Below are positions 35,562 through 58,185 of a stretch of DNA of 64,000 nt, in pieces. The translations under genes and the position numbers were made by a program. The stretch is from Leptobacterium flavescens (GTDB taxonomy: Bacteria; Bacteroidota; Bacteroidia; Flavobacteriales; Flavobacteriaceae), in contig NZ_JAABOO010000001.1 in the NCBI RefSeq assembly GCF_010671605.1, positions 186,001 to 250,000 on the forward strand, in the 5' to 3' direction. Every line of letters begins with the position of its first letter. The stretch's first letter is position 1. Under the pieces are notes generated by a model. It worked only from the letters and a program-made list of their open reading frames with translations, was not told the origin of the DNA and ran no database searches.

Positions 35562-35638
35562 TCAATTATCAATGAACAGTGAGCAATTACCAATAAGCAA
35601 TTATACTTAATCTTAATACTTTGTACTCAATACTCACT
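35562..35638. repeat. Heptad-word array (11 units in register)
   Basis: Seven-base words run in perfect phase: TCAATTA, TCAATGA, ACAGTGA, GCAATTA, CCAATAA, GCAATTA, TACTTAA, TCTTAAT, ACTTTGT, ACTCAAT, ACTCACT. No reading frame or promoter is apparent. It begins just after the operon terminator and runs into the hairpin element at 35597-35746. Confidence 0.75.
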
Positions 35639-35746
35639 TCTCCGTACTCCGAAGTAAAACGAAGGAGTATCGAGAATCAAATTTTGTGTTTGCCTTTATA
35701 ACTGTTCTCGATACTTTTTCCTGCGGAAAAAACTCGAACTGACATT
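35597..35746. repeat. 150-nt composite hairpin element, copy A
   Basis: This is the near-exact inverse of 53445-53595: eight differences, one of them a 1-nt indel. It holds three hairpins: ACTCC/GGAGT (35646-35668), AGTATCGAGAA/TTCTCGATACT (35666-35676 with 35705-35715) and TTTTTCC/GGAAAAA (35715-35731). All differences inside the hairpin core fall in loops. Confidence 0.85.
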
Positions 35747-35782
35747 TCCTAAATACTCCATGATCCAACTCCACCTCTTGAT

Positions 35783-35823
35783 GAGCCTGTATCGAGCGTA
35801 GTCGAGATGCTCGAAGTGACATT
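35783..35823. repeat. 41-nt palindromic repeat, copy A
   Basis: Identical to the reverse complement of 52481-52521 over 41 nt. It contains the self-complementary words ATCGAGCGTAGTCGAGAT and CGAGATGCTCG. It is followed by further heptads (TCTCAGT, ACTTAAT, ACTAATC, ACTAAAA). Confidence 0.85.
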
Positions 35824-35886
35824 CATCTCAGTACTTAATACTAATCACTAAAAGCCACCCTCCTACATAAAGCGTTAGCGTAGATG

Positions 35887-35966
35887 AACAACAAACAACC
35901 ATCAACCATCAACCAACAACCAACAACAACTTCTCAATACTCAATACTTTGTACTAAATACCATTT
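35887..35966. repeat. Heptad-word arrays AACAACC/ATCAACC and ACTCAAT
   Basis: 35887-35928 is six 7-mers (AACAACA, AACAACC, ATCAACC, ATCAACC, AACAACC, AACAACA), the complement of the GGTTGTT arrays at 54488 and 57981. 35932-35966 continues with TCTCAAT, ACTCAAT, ACTTTGT, ACTAAAT, ACCATTT. The rest of the 35525-36022 spacer holds no gene that I can support. Confidence 0.75.
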
Positions 35967-36022
35967 AAACCATTCGGTTTTTTATCAGTCTAATAATTGA
36001 GAACATATTAAAACCATAGATT

Positions 36023-36370
36023 ATGAAACTATTAAAAAACTTAGGCCTGGTGATGTTGGTTTCTTTTGCCCTGAGTTCGTGTTCGGCAAAGGCGACAGTA
36101 AGAGTAGCTCCTGCACAGGGAGTGGTTATCACCAAATTACACAAGCCCCGCGTGGTAGTACATAAAAGAGTTACTTATTACTGCTCCAAAGGAGTTTGGT
36201 ACAAGAAAAAAGCAAATAGATATGTTGTGGTAAGGCCACCTGCCGGTATTAAGGTAACTGTATTACCCAGAGGCTATAAAGTGGTTAGCATACGCAAAAA
36301 GAGATATTATACCTACAATGGGATTTACTACCAAAAAAGAGGTAGATCCTACGTAGTAGTTCATGTATAG
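36023..36370 (+). CDS. Small lipoprotein, DUF6515-like
   Basis: 115-residue protein with lipobox LSSC (cysteine near residue 20). A beta-rich, basic, tyrosine-rich body contains two similar YY-x-x-G-x-W/Y-Y units: VTYYCSKGVWYKKKANRYVVVRPPAG and KKRYYTYNGIYYQKRGRSYVVVHV. PPAGIKVTVLPRGYKVV between them is the hallmark of DUF6515 proteins, which are envelope proteins of unknown function. It is monocistronic with its own terminator. Confidence 0.75.
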   Translation: MKLLKNLGLVMLVSFALSSCSAKATVRVAPAQGVVITKLHKPRVVVHKRVTYYCSKGVWYKKKANRYVVVRPPAGIKVTVLPRGYKVVSIRKKRYYTYNGIYYQKRGRSYVVVHV

Positions 36371-36401
36371 TTAGTTTAGTTGGTTTGATTTAGTCAGGAA
36401 A

Positions 36402-36437
36402 GATTCAGGATTTAATACAGTTCTGAATCTTTTTTTA
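36402..36437 (+). terminator. Rho-independent terminator
   Basis: AGATTCAG (36402-36409) pairs with CTGAATCT (36424-36431), followed by T7. It ends the DUF6515-like gene transcript and abuts the convergent gene at 36435. Confidence 0.85.
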
Positions 36438-37469
36438 TTTAAATCTCAACCGGGCAATGCGGTTCCTACCGGCCGCGTATGCCGTACTGTCGTTCAAAAA
36501 CTTAATTGTATAGAACCCTTCATCCGAAAGTTTCTTCCAGCTATTACCCGAATCATTTGAAAATGATATCCCCGTAAAACCAACGGCAACCATTTCGTTG
36601 GCCTGACTTCCCGGGATGTATTGTACACAACTCTTATAAACAGCACCTCCTCCATCACTTACAAGGGTCCATGTTTTTCCCCCGTCTGTAGTGACAGCCT
36701 TATTTTTTTCATTTCCTTCAGGCTTGGTATAATCTCCTCCGATAACCACCCCATTATTCTCATCGTAAAAATCGACCGAATAGATCCCCTGAGTTGCTAC
36801 TCCCTGGATAATCGGGGTTTCATAAACTTCCCAGCTCTCCCCCCTATCGAGCGAATAAAATACCCTGCTTCGCATTCCTCCGGAAACGATCCAGGTATGA
36901 TCTCCATAGATCGCAATATTGGTATCACTGGCAGCAAAAGCAGCTTCCCCTTCCCCACTCTGAGGTAGTTTATCGCAACTCAGCTTGGTCCATGTATCTC
37001 CGCCATCTCTTGTAATTATTATCGACAGGCAATTATCTGTAGGATCTCCCATGGCAATTCCCTCCTTTTCATTCCAGAAGGTCATGGAATCGTAAAACAC
37101 ATTTTCATGTACCTCTTTATACACCATTTTTAGTTCGGGAGTAAGCTTAAAGAGCAGTGCCGGATTAGCAATACTAAGGGCAAAAGCATCTTTCCCGTTG
37201 TATGCCACCGATCTGAAAGCCGGATAGATCGTATCGACGGAAATCCTCTCGGTGATCATTGCACCTTCTTTGGTATATCTTCCGTAGATCCCTTTATTGG
37301 CAGCAAACCACAACTCTCCTTCATCTGTCAGTTCTATGGCCCGGATGCTGATAGAATCGCTGTAGATCTCCTCAACATCTACCGTATTAAATTCTCTGGG
37401 TATATATTCTTTTTTAGTGTTACAGGAAAAAAGGAACAAACCCGCCAGCAGATAAAGAAAGTTTTTCAT
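36435..37469 (-). CDS. BNR/Asp-box repeat lipoprotein (YCF48/HCF136-like beta-propeller)
   Basis: 344-residue exported lipoprotein (lipobox LFSC, cysteine at residue 16). At least four Asp-box repeats are visible: TRDGGDTWTKL, SLDRGESWEVY, TTDGGKTWTLV and SNDSGNSWKKL. This predicts a six- or seven-bladed propeller similar to photosystem-II assembly factor YCF48 and sialidase-like folds. Flavobacterial relatives are often annotated as oxidoreductases without evidence. No catalytic sialidase residues are evident, and the function is unknown. Confidence 0.8.
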   Translation of the reverse strand: MKNFLYLLAGLFLFSCNTKKEYIPREFNTVDVEEIYSDSISIRAIELTDEGELWFAANKGIYGRYTKEGAMITERISVDTIYPAFRSVAYNGKDAFALSIANPALLFKLTPELKMVYKEVHENVFYDSMTFWNEKEGIAMGDPTDNCLSIIITRDGGDTWTKLSCDKLPQSGEGEAAFAASDTNIAIYGDHTWIVSGGMRSRVFYSLDRGESWEVYETPIIQGVATQGIYSVDFYDENNGVVIGGDYTKPEGNEKNKAVTTDGGKTWTLVSDGGGAVYKSCVQYIPGSQANEMVAVGFTGISFSNDSGNSWKKLSDEGFYTIKFLNDSTAYAAGRNRIARLRFK

Positions 37470-37652
37470 CTATTTAAAATTTTTATTTCGCTGCAACCAA
37501 ACAAATAAAAATTATTTGCACGGATGCAACCGTTTTACTTTCGCATAAAAAATTTAATTCTTCGGGTTGGTATACAAACAATTAATTTTATTTATGCTTA
37601 TTTCATCTATTTAAAATTTTATCAAAAATAAAAGTATTCCTTTCTAAAACAA

Positions 37653-37660
37653 TACCTTTG
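37653..37660 (+). promoter_or_regulatory. -7 box for the RsmB-like gene
   Basis: TACCTTTG fits TAnnTTTG and lies 18 nt before the ATG at 37678, implying a very short leader. The 208-nt spacer also carries a 20-nt direct repeat around TTTCATCTATTTAAAATTTT (near 37465 and 37601). Confidence 0.6.
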
Positions 37661-37677
37661 CATCCCAATTTTGTGAA

Positions 37678-38892
37678 ATGAGGTTACACAGGAATTTAGT
37701 TTTTGCAGTTATTGACGGTTTACACCAGATCTTTAACGAAAATAAATACGCCGATAAGGTCGTAGAGCAGTTATTAAAAAGAGATAAGCGATGGGGAGCC
37801 AGAGATCGGGCTTTTATTGCCGAAACCACCTACGATATAGTTCGGTGGCGGCGTCTCTATGCGGAAATTGCCGGAGCCGGATCGCATTTCAGCAGAGAAA
37901 ACCTTTGGAAGATCTTTGCAGTATGGGCTGTTATGAGAGGAATTCAGTTACCCGACTGGAAACAATTTTACGGAACCCCCGTACGGAGGATCAAGGGGAA
38001 ATTCGATGAACTTTCCAGGCAACGTATATATCGTGAATCTGTTCCCGATTGGATGGATCAGTTGGGTGAAAAAGAATTGGGTCAGGAGACCTGGGATAAG
38101 GAAATTGCAGCTCTTAACCGTCAGGCCGATGTGATCCTGAGAGTAAATACGCTTAAAACCAATAAAAAAAACCTTCAGTTCAGTCTCAGGGATCAGGATA
38201 TAGAAACCACAGAAATAAAAGGATATCCTCATGCTCTTAAACTAAAGGAAAGAGCCAATATCTTTAAAACAGAAGCTTTTCAGAACGGCTGGTTTGAAGT
38301 TCAGGATGCATCTTCTCAACTGGTAGCTTCCCTTTTGGATGTCAAATCCGGAATGAGAGTAGTTGATGCCTGTGCCGGAGCCGGAGGAAAAAGTTTGCAC
38401 CTGGCCTCCCTCATGGAGAACAAGGGGCAGATAATTGCCATGGATATTTATGAAAATAAATTAAAGGAATTAAAACGAAGGGCAAAACGCAATGGTGCCC
38501 ACAATATAGAAACCCGGGTAATAGACGGTTCCAAAACTGTCAAAAAATTAATTAATTCGGCAGACCGATTGCTGATAGATGCTCCCTGTAGCGGTCTTGG
38601 GGTCCTGAGAAGAAATCCGGATGCCAAGTGGAAACTAAAGCCGGAATTTATTGAGGAGATCAAAAAAACACAGGCCGATATTCTTCAGTCCTATTCCAGA
38701 ATGGTAAAAGAAGGTGGGAAAATGATCTATGCCACCTGTTCTGTTCTTCCATCTGAGAATCAGCAGCAGGTAAAGGATTTCCTTGCTTCGGAAGCCGGGA
38801 AAGACTTTAAATTTAAAAAGGAAAATATCATTCTGGCCTCCGATTCGGGCTTCGATGGTTTTTATATGGCGTTGCTGGAAAAAAGCAAATAA
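37678..38892 (+). CDS. RsmB/NOP-family RNA 5-methylcytosine methyltransferase
   Basis: 404-residue SAM-dependent enzyme. The N-terminal half resembles the NusB-like RNA-binding region (RWGARDRAFIAETTYDIVRWRRLY, about 37-60). The methyltransferase core contains DACAGAGGKSLHLA near residue 225 (SAM binding), DAPCSGLGVLRRNPD near 303 and YATCSVLPSENQQQV near 350. The two cysteines of the latter motifs are the paired catalytic residues. It probably methylates 16S rRNA C967 or a similar site. Confidence 0.9.
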   Translation: MRLHRNLVFAVIDGLHQIFNENKYADKVVEQLLKRDKRWGARDRAFIAETTYDIVRWRRLYAEIAGAGSHFSRENLWKIFAVWAVMRGIQLPDWKQFYGTPVRRIKGKFDELSRQRIYRESVPDWMDQLGEKELGQETWDKEIAALNRQADVILRVNTLKTNKKNLQFSLRDQDIETTEIKGYPHALKLKERANIFKTEAFQNGWFEVQDASSQLVASLLDVKSGMRVVDACAGAGGKSLHLASLMENKGQIIAMDIYENKLKELKRRAKRNGAHNIETRVIDGSKTVKKLINSADRLLIDAPCSGLGVLRRNPDAKWKLKPEFIEEIKKTQADILQSYSRMVKEGGKMIYATCSVLPSENQQQVKDFLASEAGKDFKFKKENIILASDSGFDGFYMALLEKSK

Positions 38893-38956
38893 TAAGACTG
38901 TCGAAAAGCCTGTTAAAAACTAATCGATTTTCGTCCTATTTTAGAAGCGATTTGTG

Positions 38957-38964
38957 TAAATTTG
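38957..38964 (+). promoter_or_regulatory. -7 box for purL
   Basis: TAAATTTG fits TAnnTTTG, 55 nt before the selected purL start. Confidence 0.5.
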
Positions 38965-39019
38965 CATTTTCTATAATCATCTGTTTATTGTATTGATAAA
39001 CAAAAACGAATTTCGATTT

Positions 39020-42679: not shown

Positions 42680-42687
42680 ATTTACCA

Positions 42688-43137: not shown

Positions 43138-43151
43138 TTCCCCTTATATGA

Positions 43152-43185
43152 CAAAACCCTGTGACCAGAAACACACAGGGTTTTG
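43152..43185. terminator. Terminator hairpin after purL-spoU
   Basis: CAAAACCCTGTG (43152-43163) pairs with CACAGGGTTTTG (43174-43185). The 12-bp stem includes the T4 run. Confidence 0.85.
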
Positions 43186-43354
43186 CAATTAAAAAACATC
43201 TCAAACTATCTAACAACCAGTTTTGTAGTATAAACATAGTTTATCCTGCAGCTAAAAAGTGCTGTATTTCGATTAAGCCAGGGTAATGCTCTTTAAGCGG
43301 TAGATATCCTTCGACGAATGGAAAGCAGTAAATTTTTAATCCCGGAGGAAGTTG

Positions 43355-43362: not shown

Positions 43363-43376
43363 GAAGAAAATAAAAA

Positions 43377-45807: not shown

Positions 45808-45831
45808 ATAAGATACTTCTTAAATTAATGA

Positions 45832-46440: not shown

Positions 46441-48846
46441 ATGATCAGAAGAATTAATAAAGTTGCTGTCATTGGTTCCGGAATTATGGGTAGTGGTATT
46501 GCATGTCATTTTGCAAATATTGGCGTTGAAGTACTACTGCTTGATATAGTCCCCAGAGAATTAAACGACAAGGAAAAAGCCAAAGGGCTTACTTTAGAAG
46601 ATAAAGTCGTAAGAAACAGAATGGTGAACGACCATTTAACAGCTTCATTAAAATCGAAACCCTCTCCTATTTATCACAAGGATTTTGCAAAGAGGATCAC
46701 AACGGGAAACCTGGAAGATGATCTTCACAAGGTTAAAGAGGTAAATTGGATCATTGAGGTAGTTGTGGAGCGTCTCGACATAAAGCAAAAAGTATTTGAA
46801 CAGATCGAAAAGCACCGTAGTCCGGGAACACTGATCACATCAAATACTTCGGGTATTCCGATAAAATTCATGAATGAAGGCAGAAGCGAGGATTTCAGAA
46901 AACATTTTGCGGTTACTCACTTTTTCAACCCTCCGCGATATCTCAAGTTATTTGAGGTGATCCCCGGGCCGGATTGTCTTCCGGAGATCACAGATTTCCT
47001 AATGGGATACGGTGAAAAATTCCTGGGTAAAACTTCTGTTCTTGCAAAAGATACTCCTGCCTTTATCGGTAACAGGATCGGGATATTCGGTATCCAAAGC
47101 CTGTTTCACCAGGTAAAGGAATTAGGGCTTACTATTGAAGAAGTGGACAAGCTTACGGGACCGGTTATCGGAAGACCGAAATCGGCTACTTTCCGTACCG
47201 TTGATGTAGTTGGATTGGATACCCTGGTACATGTTGCCAACGGAATTCATGAAAATTGCCCGGATGATGAAGCTCATGAATTATTCAGGCTTCCCGATTT
47301 TATTGAAAAGATGGTGCAGAACAAATGGCTGGGAAGTAAAACCGGACAAGGATTCTATAAAAAAACAGTGAACGGAGACGGGAAGAAAGAGATCCTTTCA
47401 CTGGATCTGGATACTATGGAATACAGAGCTAAGAAGAGTGCAAAATTTGCTACTCTCGAGTTAACAAAGACCATAGACCGCCCGATAGATCGTTTTAAGG
47501 TACTGGTAGGCGGAAAAGATAAGGCCGGAGAATTCTACAGAAAGAATTTTGCCGCCATGTTCGCCTATGTTCAAAACAGGATCCCTGAGATCTCTGATGA
47601 ACTCTATCGTATAGATGATGCCATGAAAGCCGGCTTCGGATGGGAAAACGGTCCGTTTGAGATCTGGGATTCCATCGGAGTGGAGAAAGGGATAGAATTG
47701 ATGAAAGCCGAAGGCCTGGAAGTTGCGGATTGGGTGAATGAAATGCTTGCCGGAGGAAATAACAGTTTCTATACCGTTAAGGACGGAGCTACCTATTATT
47801 ATGATATTCCGGCCAAGGTTCAGACTAAAAAACCTGGGCAGGATGCCTTTATTATTCTTGATAATATCAGAAAGACCAATGAGGTCTTTAAGAACAGCGG
47901 AGTTGTCATCGAAGATCTTGGAGATGGTATCCTTAACGTAGAATTCCGTTCTAAAATGAATACCATTGGCGGGGACGTTCTCGCCGGTCTGAATAAAGGG
48001 ATCGATCTGGCTGAAAAAGATTTCCAGGGATTGGTGATCGGAAACCAGGGTGCTAATTTCTCTGTAGGAGCCAATATCGGAATGATATTTATGATGGCAG
48101 TAGAGCAGGAATATGACGAATTGAATATGGCCATCAAATATTTCCAGGATACCATGATGCGTATGCGATACTCCTCAATCCCGACCATCTCTGCGCCTCA
48201 TGGAATGTCCCTGGGAGGTGCCTGTGAGCTATCTATGCATGCCGATAAGGTTGTTGCAGCGGCAGAATCATATATAGGATTGGTGGAATTCGGAGTTGGA
48301 GTTATCCCCGGAGGGGGTGGATCCAAAGAGATGGCACTCAGAGCATCGGATACTTTCAGAAAGAATGATGTTGAGTTGAATGTTTTACAGGAATACTTCC
48401 TGACCATCGGAATGGCAAAAGTATCTACTTCTGCTTATGAAGCTTTCGATCTCGGTATTCTTCAGAAAGGAAAAGATATTGTAGTTGTCAATAAGGACCG
48501 TCAGATAGCGCAGGCAAAAAAGCATGCGGTACTTATGGCAGAAGCAGGATATACCAAACCTGTAAAAAGAAAAGATGTAAAAGTACTCGGGAAGCAGGCA
48601 TTGGGAATGTTCCTTGTGGGAACAGACTCGATGGAAGCCGGGCATTTTATTTCAGAGCACGATAAGAAGATCGCCAATAAACTGGCCTATGTCATGGCCG
48701 GAGGAGATCTTTCAGAACCGAATTATGTGAGCGAACAATATCTGCTCGATATAGAACGCGAAGCCTTTCTTTCACTTTGTACGGAAAGAAAAACACTGGA
48801 GCGTATTCAGCATATGTTAAAAACGGGGAAACCATTACGTAATTAA
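46441..48846 (+). CDS. fadN: 3-hydroxyacyl-CoA dehydrogenase / enoyl-CoA hydratase, FadN type
   Basis: 801-residue bifunctional beta-oxidation enzyme. The NAD-binding dehydrogenase domain is N-terminal (VIGSGIMGSGIACHFANIG near residue 10; TSNTSGIPI and HFFNPPRYLKLFEVIPG follow). The crotonase domain is C-terminal (GANFSVGANIGMI near 540, PHGMSLGGACELSMHAD near 583, EFGVGVIPGGGGSKEMALRA near 620). This order is opposite to enterobacterial FadB/FadJ and matches Bacillus FadN. It is followed by fadA and fadE as in the fadNAE operon, with one inserted gene between fadN and fadA. Confidence 0.93.
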   Translation: MIRRINKVAVIGSGIMGSGIACHFANIGVEVLLLDIVPRELNDKEKAKGLTLEDKVVRNRMVNDHLTASLKSKPSPIYHKDFAKRITTGNLEDDLHKVKEVNWIIEVVVERLDIKQKVFEQIEKHRSPGTLITSNTSGIPIKFMNEGRSEDFRKHFAVTHFFNPPRYLKLFEVIPGPDCLPEITDFLMGYGEKFLGKTSVLAKDTPAFIGNRIGIFGIQSLFHQVKELGLTIEEVDKLTGPVIGRPKSATFRTVDVVGLDTLVHVANGIHENCPDDEAHELFRLPDFIEKMVQNKWLGSKTGQGFYKKTVNGDGKKEILSLDLDTMEYRAKKSAKFATLELTKTIDRPIDRFKVLVGGKDKAGEFYRKNFAAMFAYVQNRIPEISDELYRIDDAMKAGFGWENGPFEIWDSIGVEKGIELMKAEGLEVADWVNEMLAGGNNSFYTVKDGATYYYDIPAKVQTKKPGQDAFIILDNIRKTNEVFKNSGVVIEDLGDGILNVEFRSKMNTIGGDVLAGLNKGIDLAEKDFQGLVIGNQGANFSVGANIGMIFMMAVEQEYDELNMAIKYFQDTMMRMRYSSIPTISAPHGMSLGGACELSMHADKVVAAAESYIGLVEFGVGVIPGGGGSKEMALRASDTFRKNDVELNVLQEYFLTIGMAKVSTSAYEAFDLGILQKGKDIVVVNKDRQIAQAKKHAVLMAEAGYTKPVKRKDVKVLGKQALGMFLVGTDSMEAGHFISEHDKKIANKLAYVMAGGDLSEPNYVSEQYLLDIEREAFLSLCTERKTLERIQHMLKTGKPLRN

Positions 48847-48888
48847 TGGTAGGATTTAAGTATTGAGATTTGAGATATTAGATTTAGG
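48847..48888. repeat. Heptad-word array filling the fadN-four-helix-bundle spacer
   Basis: Immediately after the fadN stop codon are six 7-mers in phase: TGGTAGG, ATTTAAG, TATTGAG, ATTTGAG, ATATTAG, ATTTAGG. Two bases later the next gene begins. Confidence 0.75.
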
Positions 48889-48890
48889 AA

Positions 48891-49265
48891 ATGCATAAAG
48901 TAGAAGATTTAAAAATTTGGCAAAAAGCAATTGAACTGGTTAAATTGGTTTATTTGCTAATTGCTGAATTACCTTCCGATGAAAAATACGGTCTGATATC
49001 ACAGATTAAAAGAAGCGCTATTTCTATACCATCTAATATTGCCGAAGGTGCAGGGAGGAATTCTAACAAGGAGTTTATTCACTTTTTAAGTATTGCCAAT
49101 GGTTCAACTTATGAGCTTCAGACTCAACTAATTTTAGTTTTAGAATTAAATCTCTCAACCAAGCAAAAAGTATCTACGCTTATAGATGCGTGTATAGAAA
49201 TACAAAAAATGAATTATTCGTTTCAAAAAACATTAAAAGAAAATGATCTCAATACTCAATACTGA
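48891..49265 (+). CDS. Four-helix-bundle protein (S23 / 23S rRNA intervening-sequence family)
   Basis: 124-residue protein. MHKVEDLKIWQKAIELVKLVY, LPSDEKYGLISQIKRSAISIPSNIAEGAGRNSNKEFIHFLSIANGSTYELQTQL and a final helix are the S23 family signature. Its structural relatives include the Avd accessory protein of diversity-generating retroelements, which binds nucleic acid. Here it interrupts the fadN-fadA gene pair and is flanked by heptad-word arrays on both sides. The right-hand array forms its last codons (DLNTQY). It is not known to function in fatty-acid metabolism and looks inserted. Confidence 0.88.
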   Translation: MHKVEDLKIWQKAIELVKLVYLLIAELPSDEKYGLISQIKRSAISIPSNIAEGAGRNSNKEFIHFLSIANGSTYELQTQLILVLELNLSTKQKVSTLIDACIEIQKMNYSFQKTLKENDLNTQY

Positions 49266-49281
49266 GATCTAAAATCTAAAG
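49247..49281. repeat. Heptad-word array overlapping the 3' end of the four-helix-bundle gene
   Basis: TCTCAAT, ACTCAAT, ACTGAGA, TCTAAAA, TCTAAAG run in phase across the stop codon (49263-49265) and up to the fadA leader. The first words are complements of the TATTGAG words on the left flank. Confidence 0.75.
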
Positions 49282-49286
49282 TAAAA

Positions 49287-50471
49287 ATGAAAACAGCATA
49301 TATAGTTAAAGGATATAGAACAGCAGTGGGAAAGGCTCCCAAAGGTCTGTTCAGATTTAAAAGGCCGGATGAGCTGGCCGCAGAGACTATTGAGCACATG
49401 CTCAAGGATCTTCCGCAATTAGACAAAACACGTATCGATGACGTGATCGTTGGGAATGCAATGCCGGAAGCAGAACAGGGGTTAAACATGGCACGTCTTA
49501 TTTCTCTTATGGGTCTTAAAATTGAAGATGTGCCAGGGGTAACCGTAAACCGTTATTGCGCATCCGGATTGGAAACTATCGGGATTGCAACTGCAAAGAT
49601 CCAGGCGGGAATGGCCGATTGTATTATTGCAGGTGGTGCGGAAAGTATGAGTTATATCCCAATGGGAGGATATAAACCTACGCCGGATTACGGTGTTGCC
49701 AAGGAAGGAAATGAAGATTATTACTGGGGAATGGGCTTAACAGCTGAAGCTGTAGCCAATCAGTTTAAGGTTTCCAGAGAAGACCAGGACGAGTTTGCTT
49801 ATAATTCTCATATGAAAGCCATTAAGGCTATCAAAGAAGGGAAATTTAATGATCAGATCGTACCCATAGATGTGGAACAGGTATATGTTGATGAGAATGG
49901 GAAAAAGGCGAGCAAAAAATATACGGTAGATACGGATGAAGGACCAAGACCGGATACCAATACGGCTGTACTGAATAAGCTTCGCCCTGTATTTGCGGCC
50001 GGAGGAAGCGTAACCGCAGGAAATTCATCACAGATGAGTGATGGGGCTGCTTTTGTACTGGTTATGAGTGAGGAAATGGTAAAAGAATTAAACCTGGAAC
50101 CTATTGCCCGTCTGGTAAACTATGCTGCTGCAGGAGTAGAACCCAGAATTATGGGGATAGGACCTGTAAAAGCTATTCCGAAAGCCTTAAAACAGGCCGG
50201 AATGAAGCTCGAAGATATAGAACTTATAGAACTGAATGAAGCATTCGCTTCCCAATCGCTGGCAGTGATCAGGGAACTGGGGCTCAATCAGGAGATCGTA
50301 AATGTAAACGGTGGGGCTATTGCTTTGGGGCATCCCCTCGGATGTACGGGAGCTAAACTCTCTGTGCAATTGTTCGATGAAATGCGAAAGCGGAAAAATA
50401 AATACGGAATGGTAACCATGTGTGTGGGTACCGGACAGGGAGCCGCCGGGATATTTGAATTTTTAAATTAA
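49287..50471 (+). CDS. fadA: Acetyl-CoA C-acyltransferase (3-ketoacyl-CoA thiolase)
   Basis: 394-residue degradative thiolase that cleaves 3-ketoacyl-CoA with CoA. The nucleophilic cysteine is C91 in [23 protein letters not shown] near residue 312, [17 protein letters not shown] near 341 (catalytic histidine) and [11 protein letters not shown] near 378 (second catalytic cysteine) are intact. It partners FadN in the beta-oxidation spiral and should be co-transcribed with it despite the inserted gene. Confidence 0.94.
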
Positions 50472-50554
50472 ACAGATATGAGAAATGAGGCCTCAGATGT
50501 GAGACATTTATCTGAAATCTCAATACTCCATACTCAATACTAAAATCTACAGAA
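50472..50554. repeat. Heptad-word array occupying the whole fadA-fadE spacer
   Basis: The spacer from the fadA stop to the fadE ATG is 83 nt, eleven 7-mers plus six bases, all in one register. Words include TGAGAAA, TGAGGCC, TCAGATG, TGAGACA, then CAATACT, CCATACT, CAATACT. The centre has a TGAGGCCTCA palindrome, and AGATA/TATCT flank it (50474-50478, 50509-50513). Confidence 0.75.
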
Positions 50555-52363: not shown

Positions 52364-52418
52364 TAAAGCTTAAGATAGAAGTTTAGTGTAACACCTTTAC
52401 TTAATTTAGTTGATTGAG

Positions 52419-52449
52419 ACCCTGGTATTTATTATCAGGGTTTTCTTTT
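52419..52449 (+). terminator. Rho-independent terminator of the fad operon
   Basis: ACCCTG (52419-52424) pairs with CAGGGT (52436-52441), with additional weak inner pairs, followed by TTTTCTTTT. Confidence 0.75.
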
Positions 52450-52454
52450 GAGTT

Positions 52455-52530
52455 GGTATTGAGTATTGAGTACTGAAAAAAATGTCACTTCGAGCATCTC
52501 GACTACGCTCGATACAGGCTCGTCGAGAAG
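52455..52530. repeat. Heptads plus 41-nt palindromic repeat, copy B
   Basis: 52458-52478 holds TATTGAG, TATTGAG, TACTGAA. 52481-52521 is the exact inverse of 35783-35823 and contains CTCGACTACGCTCGAT and CGAGCATCTCG palindromic words. A further CGTCGAGAAG follows. Confidence 0.85.
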
Positions 52531-52569
52531 TTGTAATTTGAAAATTGGCTAATAACTAATCTACGATTG

Positions 52570-52743
52570 TTGAATACTGAATAACGAATATTGAATGATG
52601 AAGTATTCATTTACAGATAAACATTGGCTTCTGCCTAAATATTATTGGCTATTTAGAACTTACCGGTTACTTAATACTTTGTACTTAATACTTAATACTA
52701 ACTAATGACTAATCGCTAACCACTAAAAGCTAAAAACTAACAT
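52570..52743. repeat. Heptad-word arrays next to paiB
   Basis: 52570-52604 is TTGAATA, CTGAATA, ACGAATA, TTGAATG, ATGAAGT. 52657-52740 is twelve 7-mers in phase, including TTAATAC, TTTGTAC, TTAATAC, TTAATAC, TAACTAA, TGACTAA, TCGCTAA, CCACTAA, AAGCTAA and AAACTAA. It ends at the stop codon of the minus-strand paiB gene. Nothing else is supported in the 52364-52743 spacer. Confidence 0.75.
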
Positions 52744-53364
52744 CTACCCCTTAAAATGCTTTTTCATTTCTTCCGCTATTTTGGCGGAATGATCATCTCC
52801 CCTGTCATTTAGTTTTTCCCTTACCACCGAATGGTTCTTTGCATCCCGGTTCTGGGATAATTTAAAGGCCGCATCCACCGATTCTATCTCTATTTCAATT
52901 CCCTTAATTCCCCTCATTTCCGTTTTAACCATTTTGGACGATAACTCTTCCATCTTTATTGGTTTCTCTGAAGTCTTTTCATATTTATCGATCAGACGCT
53001 TAAGGGCTTGCCACAGTTCCTCATTATCCAGTAATCTCATCTTCCCGTAAACATGTACGGCTATATAATTCCATGTTGGCACATTCTCATGGTCATACCA
53101 GGAAGAGGAAACATAGGTATGAGGGCCGTGAAATATAACAAGTACCTCATTGTCATTTTCCAGGTTTTTCCATTGCAGGTTCCCTCTTGATACATGACCA
53201 ATAAGTACATCCTTTCCCGCTTCATTTTTGGTAAGTTCCAATGGGATATGCGTTGCCCAGAGTTTTTCTCCTGTATGGTTAACAATTATTCCGAATCCGT
53301 TTTCGTGGATAAAATCAGCAATATCCTCCAGATTAGTGTTCCTGTAAATTTCCGGTATATACAT
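52744..53364 (-). CDS. FMN-binding negative transcriptional regulator, PaiB family
   Basis: 206-residue split-barrel protein. MYIPEIYRNTNLEDIADFIHENGFGIIV at the N-terminus, LIGHVSRGNLQWKNL near residue 73, VLVIFHGPHTYVSSSWYDHENVPTWNYIAVHVYGKMRLL (about 91-130) and MRGIKGIEIEIESVDAAFKLSQNRD (about 152-176) are the PaiB signature. These proteins bind FMN or haem-like ligands and are named for a Bacillus regulator, but many are probably oxidoreductases. Heptad arrays flank it on both sides. Confidence 0.9.
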   Translation of the reverse strand: MYIPEIYRNTNLEDIADFIHENGFGIIVNHTGEKLWATHIPLELTKNEAGKDVLIGHVSRGNLQWKNLENDNEVLVIFHGPHTYVSSSWYDHENVPTWNYIAVHVYGKMRLLDNEELWQALKRLIDKYEKTSEKPIKMEELSSKMVKTEMRGIKGIEIEIESVDAAFKLSQNRDAKNHSVVREKLNDRGDDHSAKIAEEMKKHFKG

Positions 53365-53392
53365 AAGTCTTGATTATGGATATAAAGGTATT

Positions 53393-53441
53393 GATTTAGT
53401 TTTTAGAATCGAGTACTGAGTATTAAGTATTGAGTACTGAG
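53393..53441. repeat. Heptad-word array upstream of paiB
   Basis: GATTTAG, TTTTTAG, AATCGAG, TACTGAG, TATTAAG, TATTGAG, TACTGAG run in phase, leading into copy B of the 150-nt element. Confidence 0.8.
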
Positions 53442-53444
53442 ATG

Positions 53445-53595
53445 AATGTCAGTTCGAGTTTTTTCCACAGGAAAAAGTATCGAGAACAGTTATAAAGGAT
53501 AAACACAAAATTTGATTCTCGATACTCCTTCGCTTTACTTCGGAGTACGGAGATGTGAGTATTGAGTATGAAGTATTAAGATTAAGCATAATTGC
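53445..53595. repeat. 150-nt composite hairpin element, copy B (inverse of 35597-35746)
   Basis: This copy is about 95% identical to the reverse complement of copy A. Its hairpins are ACTCC/GGAGT, TTCTCGATACT/AGTATCGAGAA and TTTTTCC/GGAAAAA. Heptads ATGTGAG, TATTGAG, TATGAAG and TATTAAG lie at 53553-53580. Confidence 0.85.
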
Positions 53596-53610
53596 TCATT
53601 GATCATCGAT

Positions 53611-54336
53611 CTAGTAAGGTTCAATCGTAAAGCTCTCCCGTGAGCGTTCTATCAGGGCAGTTTCTATAGATTCAGCTTCTTCTTCCGGAATGGAATTCTC
53701 GAATTCTTCTAATGAATAACCTGTGCTCTTCTGAAGCATTTCCAGATAATAAATAATGATCTCATTTTTCCGGTCTTCACTGGCAAGCCCGACAAATCTC
53801 GACATCATATATTCATCCTCCAGCTTAAACCCCTTTTCCTCCAGGAAAACCCTGGTTCTGGCGCCTTCATTTTGCGGATTTTCCTTTGCCAGCAGGGCAC
53901 TGTCATAAAACCAGGTGTTATGTCTGTATCTGTTATTCCCTATAAATTCGGCGTTGCTGAAATCGTATTTGTAGGTAAATGTATTATTTGATAAAAAACC
54001 TTCAAACTGAACAATAAAAAGTTTCTCCACTTCTTTGGTTTCATCCGCTTTTGCAAAGACAAAGCGCTCTCCGGCAGCAATAGGTTTCCCCAATACTTCT
54101 TCCGCCCACTCGTCTGATGAAGCCACTATCTCAAAATCAAAATTACCGATGTAATCAAACTCCTCATCAACGCGAATATTAACTTTAGGTAATTCTTCAG
54201 ACTTCAGCAGATTATTTTCTACTGATCTCTCCGTTTTATACAGGTTTTTAGCCTGTTCTTCCGTTTTTTCCTTTCCGGAGGACTGGCATCCTAAAATACT
54301 TATCAGGATCCCAAATACGAGGATCTGTTTTTTCAT
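53611..54336 (-). CDS. Lipoprotein of unknown function
   Basis: 241-residue exported lipoprotein with lipobox ILGC (cysteine near residue 17). A lysine/glutamate-rich linker follows, then an acidic globular domain with paired motifs FVFAKADETKEVEKLFIVQFEGFLSNNTFTYKYDFSNAEFIGNNRYRHNTWFYDS. The ATG at 54336 is chosen because it gives the signal peptide; one at 54360 lies before it. No known family is recognised. It is bounded by repeat-rich spacers on both sides. Confidence 0.65.
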   Translation of the reverse strand: MKKQILVFGILISILGCQSSGKEKTEEQAKNLYKTERSVENNLLKSEELPKVNIRVDEEFDYIGNFDFEIVASSDEWAEEVLGKPIAAGERFVFAKADETKEVEKLFIVQFEGFLSNNTFTYKYDFSNAEFIGNNRYRHNTWFYDSALLAKENPQNEGARTRVFLEEKGFKLEDEYMMSRFVGLASEDRKNEIIIYYLEMLQKSTGYSLEEFENSIPEEEAESIETALIERSRESFTIEPY

Positions 54337-54487
54337 GAGAATTTGGTTGTTGGTTGTCAAAATGTTTAAGCAGTCCGGCCAAACGGGGGAGACGGACCAC
54401 CTTTATTTTTAACATAACGTAAATACACACAAACTTAGTACACAGGGTAGTGTCAATTCGTCGATTTAATGTTTTTGACTGGAATTT

Positions 54488-54522
54488 GGTTGGTGGTTGA
54501 TGGTTGTTAGTTGTTGGTTTTT
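54488..54522. repeat. GGTTGKT heptad array (five units)
   Basis: GGTTGGT, GGTTGAT, GGTTGTT, AGTTGTT, GGTTTTT run in phase. It is followed by a CCCCTTGAGGGG palindrome (54531-54542) and then GTTACTCC...GGAGTAC (54554-54582), a further imperfect hairpin. Confidence 0.75.
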
Positions 54523-54583
54523 AGTATTGTCCCCTTGAGGGGACTTTAGGGGTGTTACTCCTTCACCAAGGCCTTGGAGTACA

Positions 54584-54653
54584 TGGGTTATTAGTTGCTA
54601 GCTTTTAGTAATTGCTAATTGTTTATTGTTTATTGGTAATTGCTCATTGTTAT
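54584..54653. repeat. TTGCTAA/TTGTTTA heptad array (ten units)
   Basis: TGGGTTA, TTAGTTG, CTAGCTT, TTAGTAA, TTGCTAA, TTGTTTA, TTGTTTA, TTGGTAA, TTGCTCA, TTGTTAT run in register. The spacer 54337-54695 contains no gene that I can support. Confidence 0.8.
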
Positions 54654-54695
54654 TGCTTCTTCAAAATTCAATCCCACTCTTCAGATCGGAACAAT

Positions 54696-55337
54696 CTACA
54701 TTTTCATCAGCTTCCTTATCATTTTCTCCACTCGTTTCCGTGCGCTTTCTTTTTCCAGGTCTTTAATTCTCGTTTCAAGTATAGATATAAACTTGTCCTT
54801 ATTGTCGTTATTCACAAGATGAGCAGTCCGCTCCATATACATAGGAAATTGGTTGGGAGGACTTTTTAATAATTGCTCTGTCAGAAGGCTGAACATTTGT
54901 GAAGCGTATTCAGGAACAGATCCGAGTTCGATCATGATATTCATTGCATAATCACGGGTAATGACAGAGCCGGCATCTGCGGCATCTATGATTTGCGGGA
55001 GCTTTTCATAGATCTCCCCGGGTTTGACCCTGCTTATGCAACAAAGTGCTGTCATTGCTCCCCATTGAAGGCGGTTATTCTTATGATTTAACAGATGAAG
55101 GAAATCTTCATGGTAAGCAGAGATCAGGGTTGGTTGAAGTTCACCGATTTCATACAATACTTTTATACAATCGTTTTGTACTGCCTTTTCTTTGCCGTTC
55201 AGGTTTTTAACCAGTATTGCAATGGCTTCCGTATTATTGGTTTCCACGATCTCTGCTGCCAGTTCCTGATTGGGAATTTCATCCCTCCTCCCCTGGGCAG
55301 AGGCTAGTTTGTTTAATATATCTTCTGATCTTTCCAT
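54696..55337 (-). CDS. HEAT-repeat-like helical protein
   Basis: 213-residue all-helical cytoplasmic protein with repeated ~36-residue helical pairs (NTEAIAILVKNLNGKEKAVQNDCIKVLYEIGE; NKNNRLQWGAMTALCCISRVKPGEIYEKL; DAGSVITRDYAMNIMIELGS) typical of HEAT/ARM repeats. The C-terminus is basic (RKRVEKMIRKLMKM). No catalytic residues are visible; it is probably a binding scaffold. The start overlaps the zinc-ribbon gene by 25 nt, so the pair is coupled. Confidence 0.7.
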   Translation of the reverse strand: MERSEDILNKLASAQGRRDEIPNQELAAEIVETNNTEAIAILVKNLNGKEKAVQNDCIKVLYEIGELQPTLISAYHEDFLHLLNHKNNRLQWGAMTALCCISRVKPGEIYEKLPQIIDAADAGSVITRDYAMNIMIELGSVPEYASQMFSLLTEQLLKSPPNQFPMYMERTAHLVNNDNKDKFISILETRIKDLEKESARKRVEKMIRKLMKM

Positions 55338-55585
55338 CGTTCCAGATTAGCAATTCTTTTGGTAAAGAATCCTGCCATAAATCCCGGGAAGCCCATCTCC
55401 CTGAGTTTTCCCTTTACAAATTCCTGCATCTGAGGGAGTGTCCAGTCGGCTTGTTTAAACGCTCCTTCCTCAAAACAGTAGCTGCAGTATTTTTCATTAA
55501 GGGTCCCGTCGCTGTTATAGGCACCTCCTTTAGGGTCTTTTTTTAATGGCATTCCACAACTCTGACAATTCTTATAAGTTTTCAT
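55313..55585 (-). CDS. Putative zinc-ribbon protein
   Basis: 90-residue protein with two CxxC knuckles, CQSCGMPLKKD near residue 6 and YCSYCFEEGAF near 34, forming a zinc ribbon as in the PF12674-type family. A C-terminal helical tail follows (MQEFVKGKLREMGFPGFMAGFF). The ATG at 55585 is preferred over one at 55612. It lies 58 nt downstream of the WYL regulator gene on the same strand and overlaps the HEAT gene. Confidence 0.8.
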   Translation of the reverse strand: MKTYKNCQSCGMPLKKDPKGGAYNSDGTLNEKYCSYCFEEGAFKQADWTLPQMQEFVKGKLREMGFPGFMAGFFTKRIANLERWKDQKIY

Positions 55586-55643
55586 TTTGTATTGTTTTTT
55601 GTTCTTCAACACAAAATTAAATAGCGATACTGACAGCCCTATG

Positions 55644-56330
55644 TCAGTCTTGTTCTGCTTCTTCCAATTTTTTAATGTATTCCGATAAACTCAGGCGTTT
55701 CTCGGTTATATATTCATTGCTCAAGCTAATAGCGGTAATCCGGGAAAGTGCAAAATCGCGATAATCCTCTCTTAGCCTGCAATAGGCGATCAAATGCCAG
55801 GTCTGACTATAAAAAGTCATCCCTATGGGCTCTACAGTTCTTTCTGTTCGATTTCCTCTGATATCTTTATAACTAATATTCAGCACTTTTTTATTGCTGA
55901 TAGCCTGCTCAGTCAGATGTATATATTTAGGGGTGTAATTAGAATCTATATAAGTTCCGATGTTGGATTCCAGCAATTCTATATCTTCCAGCTGATAGTG
56001 TTTCAGTTTGTTTTTGATCTTCTCCAGGGCAGAAGAAAAGTGACCAAAAACTTCCTTATCGGTGTATTTCTCCGCCAGACGCTCCATAAAAATAAACGAT
56101 TTGGCCTCATCCAACGTAAAAGCCAGCGGAGGAAGGAAATATTTATCGACAATAAAATATCCTTTGTCCTTTTCGAAAGAAATAGGAACACCTGATTCAT
56201 CCAGAGATCTGAGATCGCGGTAAATCGTACGTTCACTCACCCCGAATTTTTCTTCCAGTTCCCGCACACCTGCATACCTTCTGGATTGCAGAAAAGACAA
56301 CAAAGCCGTAAGTCGCTCTAATCGTTTCAC
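55644..56330 (-). CDS. YafY-family transcriptional regulator (HTH + WYL)
   Basis: 228-residue regulator. An N-terminal winged helix (MKRLERLTALLSFLQSRRYAGVRELEEKFGVSERTIYRDLRSLDESGVPI, about 1-50) is followed by a WYL-type domain (TEQAISNKKVLNISYKDIRGNRTERTVEPIGMTFYSQTWHLIAYCRLREDYRDFALSRI, about 140-200). WYL domains sense small ligands or nucleic acids. The start codon is GTG at 56330. It may control the zinc-ribbon/HEAT genes that follow. Confidence 0.92.
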   Translation of the reverse strand: MKRLERLTALLSFLQSRRYAGVRELEEKFGVSERTIYRDLRSLDESGVPISFEKDKGYFIVDKYFLPPLAFTLDEAKSFIFMERLAEKYTDKEVFGHFSSALEKIKNKLKHYQLEDIELLESNIGTYIDSNYTPKYIHLTEQAISNKKVLNISYKDIRGNRTERTVEPIGMTFYSQTWHLIAYCRLREDYRDFALSRITAISLSNEYITEKRLSLSEYIKKLEEAEQD

Positions 56331-56371
56331 CTCTCCGGGAATTTAAAATTTATTTGTCTTCAACAAAGCGG

Positions 56372-57904
56372 CTAATTTTTCTGCTTACGAGGAACCATTT
56401 CATCTCTGTTAGCCAGAGAATAAAGGGTCCAGGCAAGAATTACCGCATTTTTTTTCATATCGTCTTCGGGCACATATTCCAACACATCCAGATTGGTATG
56501 ATGAGTTACCGTATTGTACGTTAAAGGATCCTGGATAAACTGAAAAGCCGGGATATTATAATGATCAAAAGTCTCATGATCTGTAGACAGGGTATTTTCT
56601 ATGGTCATAGCTCCCGTACCCAGGGAAGAAAGCGGATCCAGGATAGTTTTAAAGACAGGGCGTGCAAATTCATTTCCCTGTAAATATATCCCTCTGATAG
56701 CCCCAGCTCCATTATCCAGGTTCAGGTAAACAGATACTTTTTTAGAACTTGCATTCGGTTTTTTATCCAGTTCTCCGTAATGCTCTCTGGCATAGGCAGC
56801 AGATCCGAGAAAGGCTTGTTCCTCCCCTCCCCAAAGTCCGATCCTGACCGTTCTTTTTAGTTTGAGTCCGTTTTCTTTTAATATTCTTAAAGCCTCCATT
56901 AATACAATAGCGCTGGCAGCATTATCGGTAGCTCCCGTTCCCGAATGCCAGGAATCGAAATGCCCTCCTATCAGTATAACCTCCGATTTGAGCTTAGGGT
57001 CCGTACCGGTAATCTCACTAATGATATTTACATTATTCTGAGGTTCAAAATAGAATTCCGTATCCAGGTTCAGTCTTACTTTTGGTTTTGCATCCCGTTC
57101 CAGCATTCGAAACAATCTTCCAAAGTGTTCGGGCATGATCGTAAAATAAGGCAATGGTTTATAATCGTTTTCCCTGTAATAGTAAGTTCCTCCCGGATGA
57201 AGAATCCCAGGTAAGGTAAGGCGGGTCTTTAACACTGCCAAAGCTCCTTCATTCTCTACAAACTGAAGAAACTCCTGATCATATTTATCTGAGGTTTCCC
57301 AGGATTTAAATAATTCCGGAAGCGGGGTTTGCTTTACTTCCGGTATCAGCTTGTTCTTTAGCTTTTGAAGCTCCTCTTTCTCATATCTCTGAGAGACCGG
57401 TTTAGTCAGATCTCTTTGCCTGGGTTCTCCTCCCAGGATTATTACCCTTCCTCTTAATTTTCCTCCAAAATCCTTTTTTACCGACTCCATATCCCTTAAA
57501 CTCGGAATATGAATCACCTCTCCTTCTACAACACCGTTAGTACTTTTGGCCATTGCCAAAGGATAAGCAGAGATATGCATATAGTTAGGAGCCGTCATTT
57601 CTACATTAAAGGCTTTTATGCCCCATCCGCGGCAGTCATCACAATAGTTTTCGAAATGAACTTTGTTAAATCCAAGTTCTTTCATCTTATCTGAAGCCCA
57701 TTTTGCCGCTTCCAGATATTCCCTGGAGCCCGTAAGCCGCTGACCGTACACATCGGTAAGCTCACTGAGCATTTCCATTGCCTGCGATCGCTGGAATCCT
57801 TCATTTCTAATAGACGCCAGCACAGAAGCGGGAGTAGATTGCGCATAACTCAGCGTGCCCGTTAAAAGAAGAAGTAATGTAAAAATTGTTTTAACCGTTT
57901 TCAT
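56372..57904 (-). CDS. Secreted M28-family aminopeptidase / carboxypeptidase Q-like
   Basis: 510-residue exported di-zinc peptidase. The signal peptide covers about residues 1-21 (LSYAQ). A PA-like insertion region comes first. The catalytic domain then has GGHFDSWHSGTGATDNAASA near residue 307 (histidine and bridging aspartate), GGEEQAFLGSAAYAREH near 350 (catalytic glutamates), STDHETFDHYNIPAFQF near 435 and THHTNLD near 461 (last histidine). All metal ligands appear present. It should degrade peptides in the periplasm. Confidence 0.92.
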   Translation of the reverse strand: MKTVKTIFTLLLLLTGTLSYAQSTPASVLASIRNEGFQRSQAMEMLSELTDVYGQRLTGSREYLEAAKWASDKMKELGFNKVHFENYCDDCRGWGIKAFNVEMTAPNYMHISAYPLAMAKSTNGVVEGEVIHIPSLRDMESVKKDFGGKLRGRVIILGGEPRQRDLTKPVSQRYEKEELQKLKNKLIPEVKQTPLPELFKSWETSDKYDQEFLQFVENEGALAVLKTRLTLPGILHPGGTYYYRENDYKPLPYFTIMPEHFGRLFRMLERDAKPKVRLNLDTEFYFEPQNNVNIISEITGTDPKLKSEVILIGGHFDSWHSGTGATDNAASAIVLMEALRILKENGLKLKRTVRIGLWGGEEQAFLGSAAYAREHYGELDKKPNASSKKVSVYLNLDNGAGAIRGIYLQGNEFARPVFKTILDPLSSLGTGAMTIENTLSTDHETFDHYNIPAFQFIQDPLTYNTVTHHTNLDVLEYVPEDDMKKNAVILAWTLYSLANRDEMVPRKQKN

Positions 57905-57980
57905 ATTTTCAATTTGAGTTTTGTATTTATTTTGGTTAGGGCGTATAAAGAAACAAAAAAGATTGGTAGTAAGTGGTATT

Positions 57981-58022
57981 GGTTGTTGGTTGTTGGTTGG
58001 TGGTTGGTGGTTGGTGGTTGTT
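57981..58022. repeat. GGTTGKT heptad array (six perfect-phase units)
   Basis: GGTTGTT, GGTTGTT, GGTTGGT, GGTTGGT, GGTTGGT, GGTTGTT. It is the cleanest tandem array in the window, and the complement of 35887-35928. Confidence 0.9.
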
Positions 58023-58023
58023 A

Positions 58024-58185
58024 GCCCTTCGCTGAAGCTTTGGACTATGACGATTATTTGTCATCTCGAGCGCAGTCGAGAGGTGGAATTTGGGTATTGA
58101 TTGTTACTCCTTCACCTCATGGTTTCGGAGCACGTAGGTAGTTTTAGTAATTGCTCATTGTTAATTGTTTATTGATCATTGTTCC
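58024..58185. repeat. Palindromic words and TTGTTAA heptads
   Basis: CCCTTCGCTGAAGCTTTGG (58024-58042), CTCGAGCGCAGTCGAGAG (58065-58082) and GTTACTCC...GGAGCAC (58102-58133) are hairpin words. They are followed by heptads TTAGTAA, TTGCTCA, TTGTTAA, TTGTTTA, TTGATCA, TTGTTCC (58144-58185). The last words include the stop codon and final codons of the acetyltransferase gene. Confidence 0.75.

What the first reader, a model, noticed from the sequence alone, without database searches (positions are those of the whole stretch)
35562..58185. Degenerate heptanucleotide arrays fill nearly all long spacers in two regions
At 35.56-35.97, 48.85, 49.25, 50.47, 52.46-52.74, 53.39-53.60, 54.49-54.65 and 57.98-58.19 kb the intergenic DNA is built of 7-base words in a fixed register. 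The word families are TAYTRAG, TTGYTMA, GGTTGKT and complements, and one array usually keeps one family. They are absent from the spacers between 36.4 and 48.8 kb and from 1-35.5 kb. Heptanucleotide tandem repeats (STRR) are known from cyanobacteria; I know of no description of this degenerate multi-family form in flavobacteria. The register is seen directly, and biological function is unknown.
Basis: partly seen in the sequence, partly recalled or inferred. Interest (0 to 1): 0.82.

Follow-up and report, generated by a model that had tools for sequence, protein, structure and literature searches.

The report
Seven-letter repeats flank S23 genes
The seven-base repeats are real, and some of them form mirror-image arms on either side of a small gene (the S23 or four-helix-bundle gene) that sits inside operons of many bacteria, which ties a long-puzzling type of repeat to a known but poorly understood gene family.

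Summary
In detail: lag-7 identity in the eight named spacers is 0.39-0.60, against 0.17-0.38 at lags 6 and 8; coding DNA shows no excess.

The arrays at 48.85 and 49.25 kb are arms of one structure. They flank ORF 48891-49265, an S23/23S_rRNA_IVP 'four helix bundle' gene between fadB and thiolase, and are reverse-complementary to each other. The array at 50.47 kb is an ORF-less heptad hairpin at the next operon junction.

The architecture recurs. At 115 S23 loci of Bacteroidota, flanking lag-7 identity is 0.44 against about 0.30. True arm pairs fold better than swapped ones, and 111 of 112 determinable ORFs read with both neighbours. Seventeen cyanobacterial plasmid loci show lag 7 of 0.51. 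A published Coxiella 23S rRNA intervening sequence (IVS) has heptamers before its S23 ORF, where RNase III cuts.

I infer an IVS-like element whose heptad stem is probably cut from mRNA by RNase III. The long one-sided arrays (35.6, 52.5, 53.4, 54.5, 58.0 kb) share words with S23 arms but hold no S23 remnant; descent from such elements is plausible, not shown. New variant of a known kind.

The parts
48847..48890 (+). Upstream heptad arm (GTATTGA/GATTTGA words) of the S23 element
   Evidence: lag 7 0.595, lag 6 0.289, lag 8 0.361; pairs with the downstream arm in the predicted fold
48891..49265 (+). S23 / 23S_rRNA_IVP four-helix-bundle ORF, 124 aa, between a fadB-like gene (46441-48846) and thiolase (49287-50471)
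   Evidence: PF05635 1.3e-39; TIGR02436 3.2e-37; solved relatives 2gsc, 2rld
49247..49286 (+). Downstream heptad arm (CTCAATA words), reverse-complementary in type to the upstream arm; overlaps the end of the ORF
50472..50554 (+). ORF-less heptad hairpin in the thiolase / acyl-CoA dehydrogenase gap
   Evidence: lag 7 0.566 vs 0.208 and 0.173; predicted hairpin -14.6 kcal/mol
35557..35691 (+). Orphan array, CAATTA and TACTTAA words, single polarity
35826..35967 (+). Orphan array, AACAACC and CTCAATA words, single polarity
52418..52742 (.). Orphan arrays of both polarities with a palindromic repeat between them, in a convergent spacer
53395..53441 (-). Orphan array (GAGTATT words on the + strand)
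53511..53610 (-). Orphan array (GAGTATT then TTGCTCA words on the + strand); part of a 157-bp repeat, 94% identical, shared with the spacer at 35.5 kb
54479..54528 (-). Orphan array (GGTTGTT words on the + strand)
54578..54673 (-). Orphan array (TAATTGC/TTTATTG words on the + strand)
57963..58034 (-). Orphan array (GGTTGTT/GGTTGGT words on the + strand)
58148..58184 (-). Orphan array (TAATTGC/TCATTGT words on the + strand); runs a few bases into ORF 58176-58652

Best explanation
The heptad arrays at 48.85 and 49.25 kb are the two arms of an element like the intervening sequences (IVS) of 23S rRNA: an S23/IVP four-helix-bundle ORF enclosed by reverse-complementary arrays of 7-nt words, lying on the sense strand in a gap of the fad operon. 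SHOWN by computation: the architecture, its recurrence in Bacteroidota and on cyanobacterial plasmids, matching of the two arms of a locus, co-directional operon placement, protein-level constraint on the ORF, and ORF-less heptad hairpins at the same operon gaps in other species. INFERRED: in the polycistronic mRNA the arms pair into a long imperfect stem that RNase III cuts, which lets the operon tolerate the insertion, as published for the Coxiella 23S rRNA IVS, whose RNase III cut lies at the first of its tandem heptamers. Because the arms are made of 7-nt words they can pair in several registers, so 7-nt slippage need not destroy the stem. The hairpin at 50.47 kb is a relic or an ORF-less form. 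The long one-sided arrays at 35.6, 52.5, 53.4, 54.5 and 58.0 kb are probably arm-derived repeats that spread and expanded together with palindromic repeats; that last step is the weakest, about even odds.
For: 115 S23 loci: lag-7 identity 0.441 on both sides, peaks at 14 and 21; flanks of other genes in the same loci 0.33 and 0.31. Cognate against swapped arms: -25.5 vs -20.9, -28.6 vs -24.7 and -33.6 vs -22.5 kcal/mol in three site classes, with 0, 6 and 0 of 5000 permutations as low; same-genome control -31.7 (24 pairs) vs -19.7 (50 pairs), p=3e-7; 63 of 115 at z < -2 against dinucleotide shuffles. Neighbours co-directional in 111 of 112. Third codon positions differ 0.46 against 0.24 and 0.13 in 231 pairs. 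74 ORF-less fad junctions: lag 7 0.412, mean hairpin z -4.05; 411 other co-directional spacers in the same loci 0.318 against 0.314-0.319. 17 cyanobacterial loci: lag 7 0.508, cognate -48.8 vs -31.5, 0 of 20000 permutations. Own element folds with z -4.64. Coxiella IVS. A 21-mer occurring 14 times in the own genome lies once beside the second S23 gene.
Against: 28 of 115 loci have no clear heptad in either arm, and 14 of 115 arm pairs fold no better than shuffles. The period-7 cross-correlation did not separate cognate from swapped arms (3.25 vs 2.96). Some fad-junction hairpins are not heptads. L255 and L259 have arrays in direct order by eye, L249 shows none, L254 pairs poorly, and three cyanobacterial ORFs are antisense to both neighbours. 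Orphan arrays do not scale with S23 number: of 10 S23-bearing genomes sampled, 3 show a clear lag-7 excess outside S23 loci, and genomes with 10-15 S23 genes show none. Two genomes without S23 have an array (G034; G060). No S23 remnant was found in own orphan spacers. RNase III cutting of these mRNAs was not tested.
Confidence: 0.68

Rival explanations
1. Plain slippage microsatellites: 7-nt units are favoured by the polymerase, arrays grow in any neutral spacer, and S23 genes merely lie in such spacers.
For: Perfect long arrays exist (G077); orphan arrays need no ORF; a polymerase preference for 7 nt has been proposed in print (cited in PMC4679880 and PMC4692102).
Against: Slippage does not explain why the arrays are inverted to each other around S23 ORFs, why the two arms of a locus match, or why other co-directional spacers in the same 80 loci show no lag-7 excess.
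Confidence: 0.15
2. REP/BIME-like hairpins: the selected feature is an intercistronic mRNA hairpin that stabilises or punctuates the operon, heptads are how such hairpins grow, and the S23 ORF is a passenger in the loop.
For: ORF-less heptad hairpins persist at the fad gaps; hairpins of other sequence families occur at the same gaps; own arrays are mixed with palindromic repeats.
Against: The ORF is intact in 113 of 115 loci and constrained at protein level, which a passenger would not need.
Confidence: 0.12
3. Binding sites for a translational regulator, as proposed for TAACTGA repeats of marine Beggiatoaceae.
For: Heptads close to start codons are reported there (PMC4679880). S23 upstream arms end near the S23 start codon.
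Against: The heptads lie equally behind the stop codon, words differ from locus to locus, and several own orphan arrays lie far from the next gene or between convergent genes.
Confidence: 0.05

Closest known systems
23S rRNA intervening sequences (IVS) with S23p / 23S_rRNA_IVP ORF, e.g. Coxiella (PMC4990558: abstract, passages and Discussion read)
   Same: Small S23 ORF on the sense strand enclosed by complementary ends that can form a stem; in Coxiella also tandem heptamers before the ORF, two or three by strain, at the RNase III site
   Different: Here the element lies in a protein-coding operon, not in 23S rRNA; both arms are heptad arrays and their words differ between loci
Heptanucleotide repeats of cyanobacteria (STRR; seen here through citing papers, word families recalled)
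   Same: Intergenic tandem 7-mers; the 17 cyanobacterial S23 loci carry such arrays as arms
   Different: Other words; STRR are described as repeats, not as arms of a gene, in the papers whose passages I saw
TAACTGA repeats (MacGregor 2015, PMC4679880)
   Same: Intergenic 7-mers, including flavobacteria
   Different: One fixed word, mostly just upstream of start codons in the Beggiatoaceae genome studied; no S23 gene mentioned in the passages searched
GGGAATC heptamers of Xanthomonas and GGGGA(T/C)T of Nostoc (PMC4692102, passages read)
   Same: Intergenic heptamers; 70 and 75 inverted pairs in two Xanthomonas genomes
   Different: Studied as G-quadruplex sequences; no four-helix protein mentioned (0 occurrences of 'four-helix')
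S23/IVP genes in cas loci (PMC3936711, passages read)
   Same: S23 genes inside operons of unrelated function, 18 found in cas loci
   Different: Listed there among functions associated with CRISPR-Cas; here cas6/cas4 and cas10/cmr3 gaps look like further insertion sites

Membership tests
23S rRNA intervening sequence (IVS) | Lies within a 23S rRNA gene | tested here: not met
   Lies between fadB-like and thiolase genes; no rRNA in the window at Rfam gathering scores
[quoted passage not shown]
   Own element fold z -4.64; arms of 115 loci
23S rRNA intervening sequence (IVS) | Encodes an S23p-family protein (in some IVS) | tested here: met
   PF05635 and TIGR02436
23S rRNA intervening sequence (IVS) | Excised from the precursor RNA by RNase III, leaving the RNA in pieces | not testable with these tools
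   Needs RNA; shown for Coxiella in print
Heptanucleotide STRR | Tandem 7-nt units in intergenic DNA | tested here: met
Heptanucleotide STRR | Words of the described cyanobacterial STRR families | not tested
   No STRR word list was fetched; words recalled only
TAACTGA repeats | TAACTGA word in tandem | tested here: not met
   None of the array units listed for the window is TAACTGA
REP/BIME | Dispersed palindromic units in spacers | tested here: inconclusive
   Palindromic repeats lie among the arrays: 13 copies of one core in 450 kb, 8 within 60 nt of an array; no transposase of the REP-associated kind was searched for
Diversity-generating retroelement (Avd relative) | Avd protein above the curated cut-off | tested here: not met
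   23.2 bits against a cut-off of 80; reverse transcriptase and template repeats were not searched for

The most novel reading that the evidence does not exclude
Heptanucleotide repeats of Bacteroidota, cyanobacteria and perhaps Xanthomonas are in origin the arms and debris of one old family of S23-encoding intervening elements that live in mRNA operons as well as in 23S rRNA, and the pentameric S23 protein acts on the heptad stem (RNA or DNA) to copy, move or protect the element. This would give the S23 family its first function and the repeats their first source.
Probability: 0.4. Interest if true: 0.9.

Novelty: new variant of a known kind. Interest (0 to 1): 0.78.

Why it matters
Heptanucleotide arrays have no accepted origin that I know of, and the S23/IVP proteins have solved structures but no established function. 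Finding them as one matched structure in Bacteroidota and on cyanobacterial plasmids makes both questions testable with RNA end mapping and one deletion. It also suggests that S23 genes in cas and other operons are insertions rather than functional partners.

Tried and rejected
Whole-window lag statistics mix the arrays with codon signals at lags 3, 6 and 9; spacers had to be separated from genes.

Period-7 cross-correlation of the two arms was meant to show the same word in both arms directly. Cognate and swapped pairs gave similar ratios (3.25 and 2.96), so I rely on duplex energies.

S23 copy number as predictor of orphan arrays: rejected as a simple rule. A weaker statement survives: at least one lag-7 segment outside S23 loci in 10 of 10 sampled genomes with S23 and in 1 of 7 without (p=0.0006). 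One search printed a Fisher value for 0 of 7, typed in before its own output showed an array in G034; one search corrects it. In G131 lag 7 does not exceed control lags (1 segment against 2 at lag 8). Two tandem-word patterns occur in 16 and 13 of 149 family genomes, 26 in all, of which 25 have S23 against 113 of 149 overall (p=0.004; singly 0.06 and 0.02). The second pattern also matches when read backwards, so its built-in control is not informative.

Orphan arrays as decayed S23 elements: no ORF remnant (best E 0.014, in a spacer without array). The only congener found (G077) gave 67 orthologous spacers in the stretches taken, but only one long orphan spacer, which is 2745 bp there against 380. 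Own S23 arms share 44% of their 8-mers with own orphan arrays, 20% with equal lengths of other spacers, but 41% with orphan arrays of G071, so the vocabulary is not specific to the genome.

Phage carriage of S23: 1 of 50,697 phage records at E 1e-3. Known RNA family: none over the arrays at gathering scores.

Rows dropped and sampling: of 137 S23 hits in loci L021-L248, 115 were kept (ORF of 300-480 nt, 130 nt flanks, no duplicates). 55 of the 115 lie at the fad operon. Loci are the best-scoring ones offered, not random. One search left four truncated hits in its 33 rows. In one search L137-L139 were not found by tblastn and four partial hits were skipped. In the first fad test L021 and L023 pair poorly with their own partners. 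Of 32 plasmid records with S23 20 were fetched and 17 cyanobacterial ones analysed; L259 and L282 belong to other phyla and L280 has a truncated ORF. The six cyanobacterial loci added last show a weaker lag-7 signal (0.407), and several of the 17 are relatives of one another.
Full report
OBSERVATION. The heptad register is real. Each of the eight named spacers has lag-7 identity of 0.39-0.60 while lags 6 and 8 give 0.17-0.38. In 450 kb of the same genome the excess is in the longer spacers and absent from coding DNA. Of spacers of 250 bp or more 18 of 48 hold an array, of shorter ones (60-249 bp) 4 of 130. In co-directional spacers with arrays, the arrays read G-poor in the sense of the genes in 12 of 14 (my count from the table; p=0.006).

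THE LEAD. The arrays at 48.85 and 49.25 kb face each other across ORF 48891-49265, an S23/23S_rRNA_IVP 'four helix bundle' protein with solved relatives. It sits between a fadB-like gene and a thiolase gene. A scan of named genomes anchored on the neighbouring acyl-CoA dehydrogenase gave 80 loci, nearly all flavobacterial by title. Together with the window's own locus (L102), the fadB/thiolase gap holds an S23 ORF in 18 of 79 rows, is 30 bp or less in 19, and is longer without S23 in 42; for the thiolase/dehydrogenase gap the counts are 23, 20 and 37 of 80. In Kordia one species has the S23 ORF (L021) and another an ORF-less heptad hairpin (L022) in the same gap.

THE ARCHITECTURE RECURS. S23 genes were found in 113 of 149 family genomes and 232 of 296 phylum genomes. 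At 115 S23 loci the 60-nt flanks have lag-7 identity 0.441 on both sides with peaks at 14 and 21; flanks of other genes in the same loci have 0.33 and 0.31, close to their other lags. The signal is strongest within about 50 nt of the ORF and lingers weakly to about 100 nt upstream. The upstream arm is G-rich and C-poor, the downstream arm the reverse. By a cut-off set on control lags, 87 of 115 loci have a heptad array in at least one arm and 45 in both. Words differ between loci, but the two arms of a locus match: cognate duplexes beat swapped ones in each of three site classes, in a same-genome control (24 against 50 pairs, p=3e-7), and at z < -2 against dinucleotide shuffles in 63 of 115 loci, with 14 above zero. 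Earlier, less tidy tests agree: 35 fad loci, 33 family hits, 33 phylum and congener rows, each with 0 of 20000 permutations as low; these sets overlap with the 115.

PLACEMENT AND CODING. In 111 of 112 determinable loci both neighbours read in the S23 direction. Third codon positions differ 0.46 against 0.24 and 0.13 at first and second positions in 231 pairs, which are not independent, and 113 of 115 ORFs are free of stops. On a tree of 113 S23 proteins the insertion-site label changes 11 times where shuffled labels need 46 on average. Sites are thus mostly inherited, with more than one arrival or loss at each fad gap; the tree has few columns and 46 of 110 inner branches are open.

ORF-LESS FORMS. 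The 74 fad gaps of 30-250 bp without S23 show lag 7 of 0.412 (other lags from 4 to 13: 0.307-0.345) and strong hairpins (51 of 74 at z < -2, mononucleotide shuffles), while 411 other co-directional spacers in the same named loci show no excess. Window 50472-50554 is such a hairpin. Several gap hairpins are not heptads at all, so these gaps tolerate or favour hairpins in general.

OTHER PHYLA. S23 hits on plasmids are mostly cyanobacterial. In 17 analysed cyanobacterial loci lag 7 is 0.508 and cognate arms give -48.8 against -31.5 kcal/mol, 0 of 20000 permutations; the true partner ranks first in 9 of 17. L250, L251, L256, L257 and L258, for example, carry plainly inverted G-rich and C-rich heptads. 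Exceptions: L255 has direct arrays by eye, L249 none, L254 pairs poorly, and L249, L250 and L252 are antisense to both annotated neighbours. A Gemmatimonadota locus has heptads on both sides, in direct order by eye. In print, the Coxiella 23S rRNA IVS has tandem heptamers before its S23 ORF, two or three by strain, with the RNase III cut at the first repeat (PMC4990558; abstract, passages and Discussion read). Two Xanthomonas genomes have 70 and 75 inverted pairs of heptamers (PMC4692102, passages read).

MECHANISM. Shown: architecture, matched arms, placement, constraint. Inferred: RNase III cutting of the mRNA stem, which would let an operon tolerate the insertion. The own element folds better than shuffles with the arms paired (z -4.64, 0 of 100), but a predicted fold is no proof. 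Why seven is unknown; a repeat register keeps arms pairable after slippage, and a polymerase preference for 7-nt slippage has been proposed in print (cited in PMC4679880 and PMC4692102).

ORPHAN ARRAYS. The long arrays at 35.6, 52.5, 53.4, 54.5 and 58.0 kb contain no S23 remnant. Array spacers are mosaics with palindromic repeats and dispersed copies: 22 of 22 match another spacer, against 14 of 156 others. A 21-mer with an off-consensus unit occurs 14 times in the genome (control 0), once beside the second S23 gene. Of ten sampled genomes with S23, three show a clear lag-7 excess outside S23 loci (G000, G077, G071); of four without S23 none does. I put descent of the orphan arrays from S23-element arms at about even odds.

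LITERATURE. Ten library searches brought up no title or abstract that links heptanucleotide arrays to S23/IVP genes in general; the Coxiella paper records heptamers for its one element. Beyond the six papers named in this report or opened in part (PMC4679880, PMC4990558, PMC4692102, PMC3936711, PMC11637426, PMC5524665) I saw listings only. The library lacks most subscription journals, so priority cannot be claimed. What I say of STRR word families is recalled.

VERDICT.

Noticed in passing
window 2082-2288, - strand: Cobalamin riboswitch, 112.5 bits, the only Rfam match in the window at gathering scores.
   Followed up: no
window about 35790-35823, 52483-52531, 58060-58085: Palindromic REP-like repeats (core CGAGCGYAGTCGAGA) mixed with the arrays: 13 copies in 450 kb, all noncoding, 8 within 60 nt of an array.
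   Followed up: partly
L253, L255, L276: S23 genes sit in gaps of CRISPR operons: cas6/cas4 on two cyanobacterial plasmids and cas10/cmr3 on a third.
   Followed up: partly
L280, about 1477-2040: A Nostoc plasmid S23 ORF annotated as truncated; the DNA behind its stop holds further heptad stretches of opposite polarity, which looks like a nested insertion.
   Followed up: no
L032, L059, L074, L076, L079, L090, L093 fad gaps: Another, non-heptad family of long hairpins rich in CCCCT/AGGGG occupies the same operon gaps in these species.
   Followed up: no
L143 14937-15085 and L153 19442-19507 (G077): Near-perfect long heptad arrays (TCCTGAC and AACCTGA units) in the congener, suggesting recent expansion.
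   Followed up: no
window 53611-54360 and 35051-35524: Two ORFs next to arrays without any Pfam or NCBIfam match at E 1e-3.
   Followed up: no
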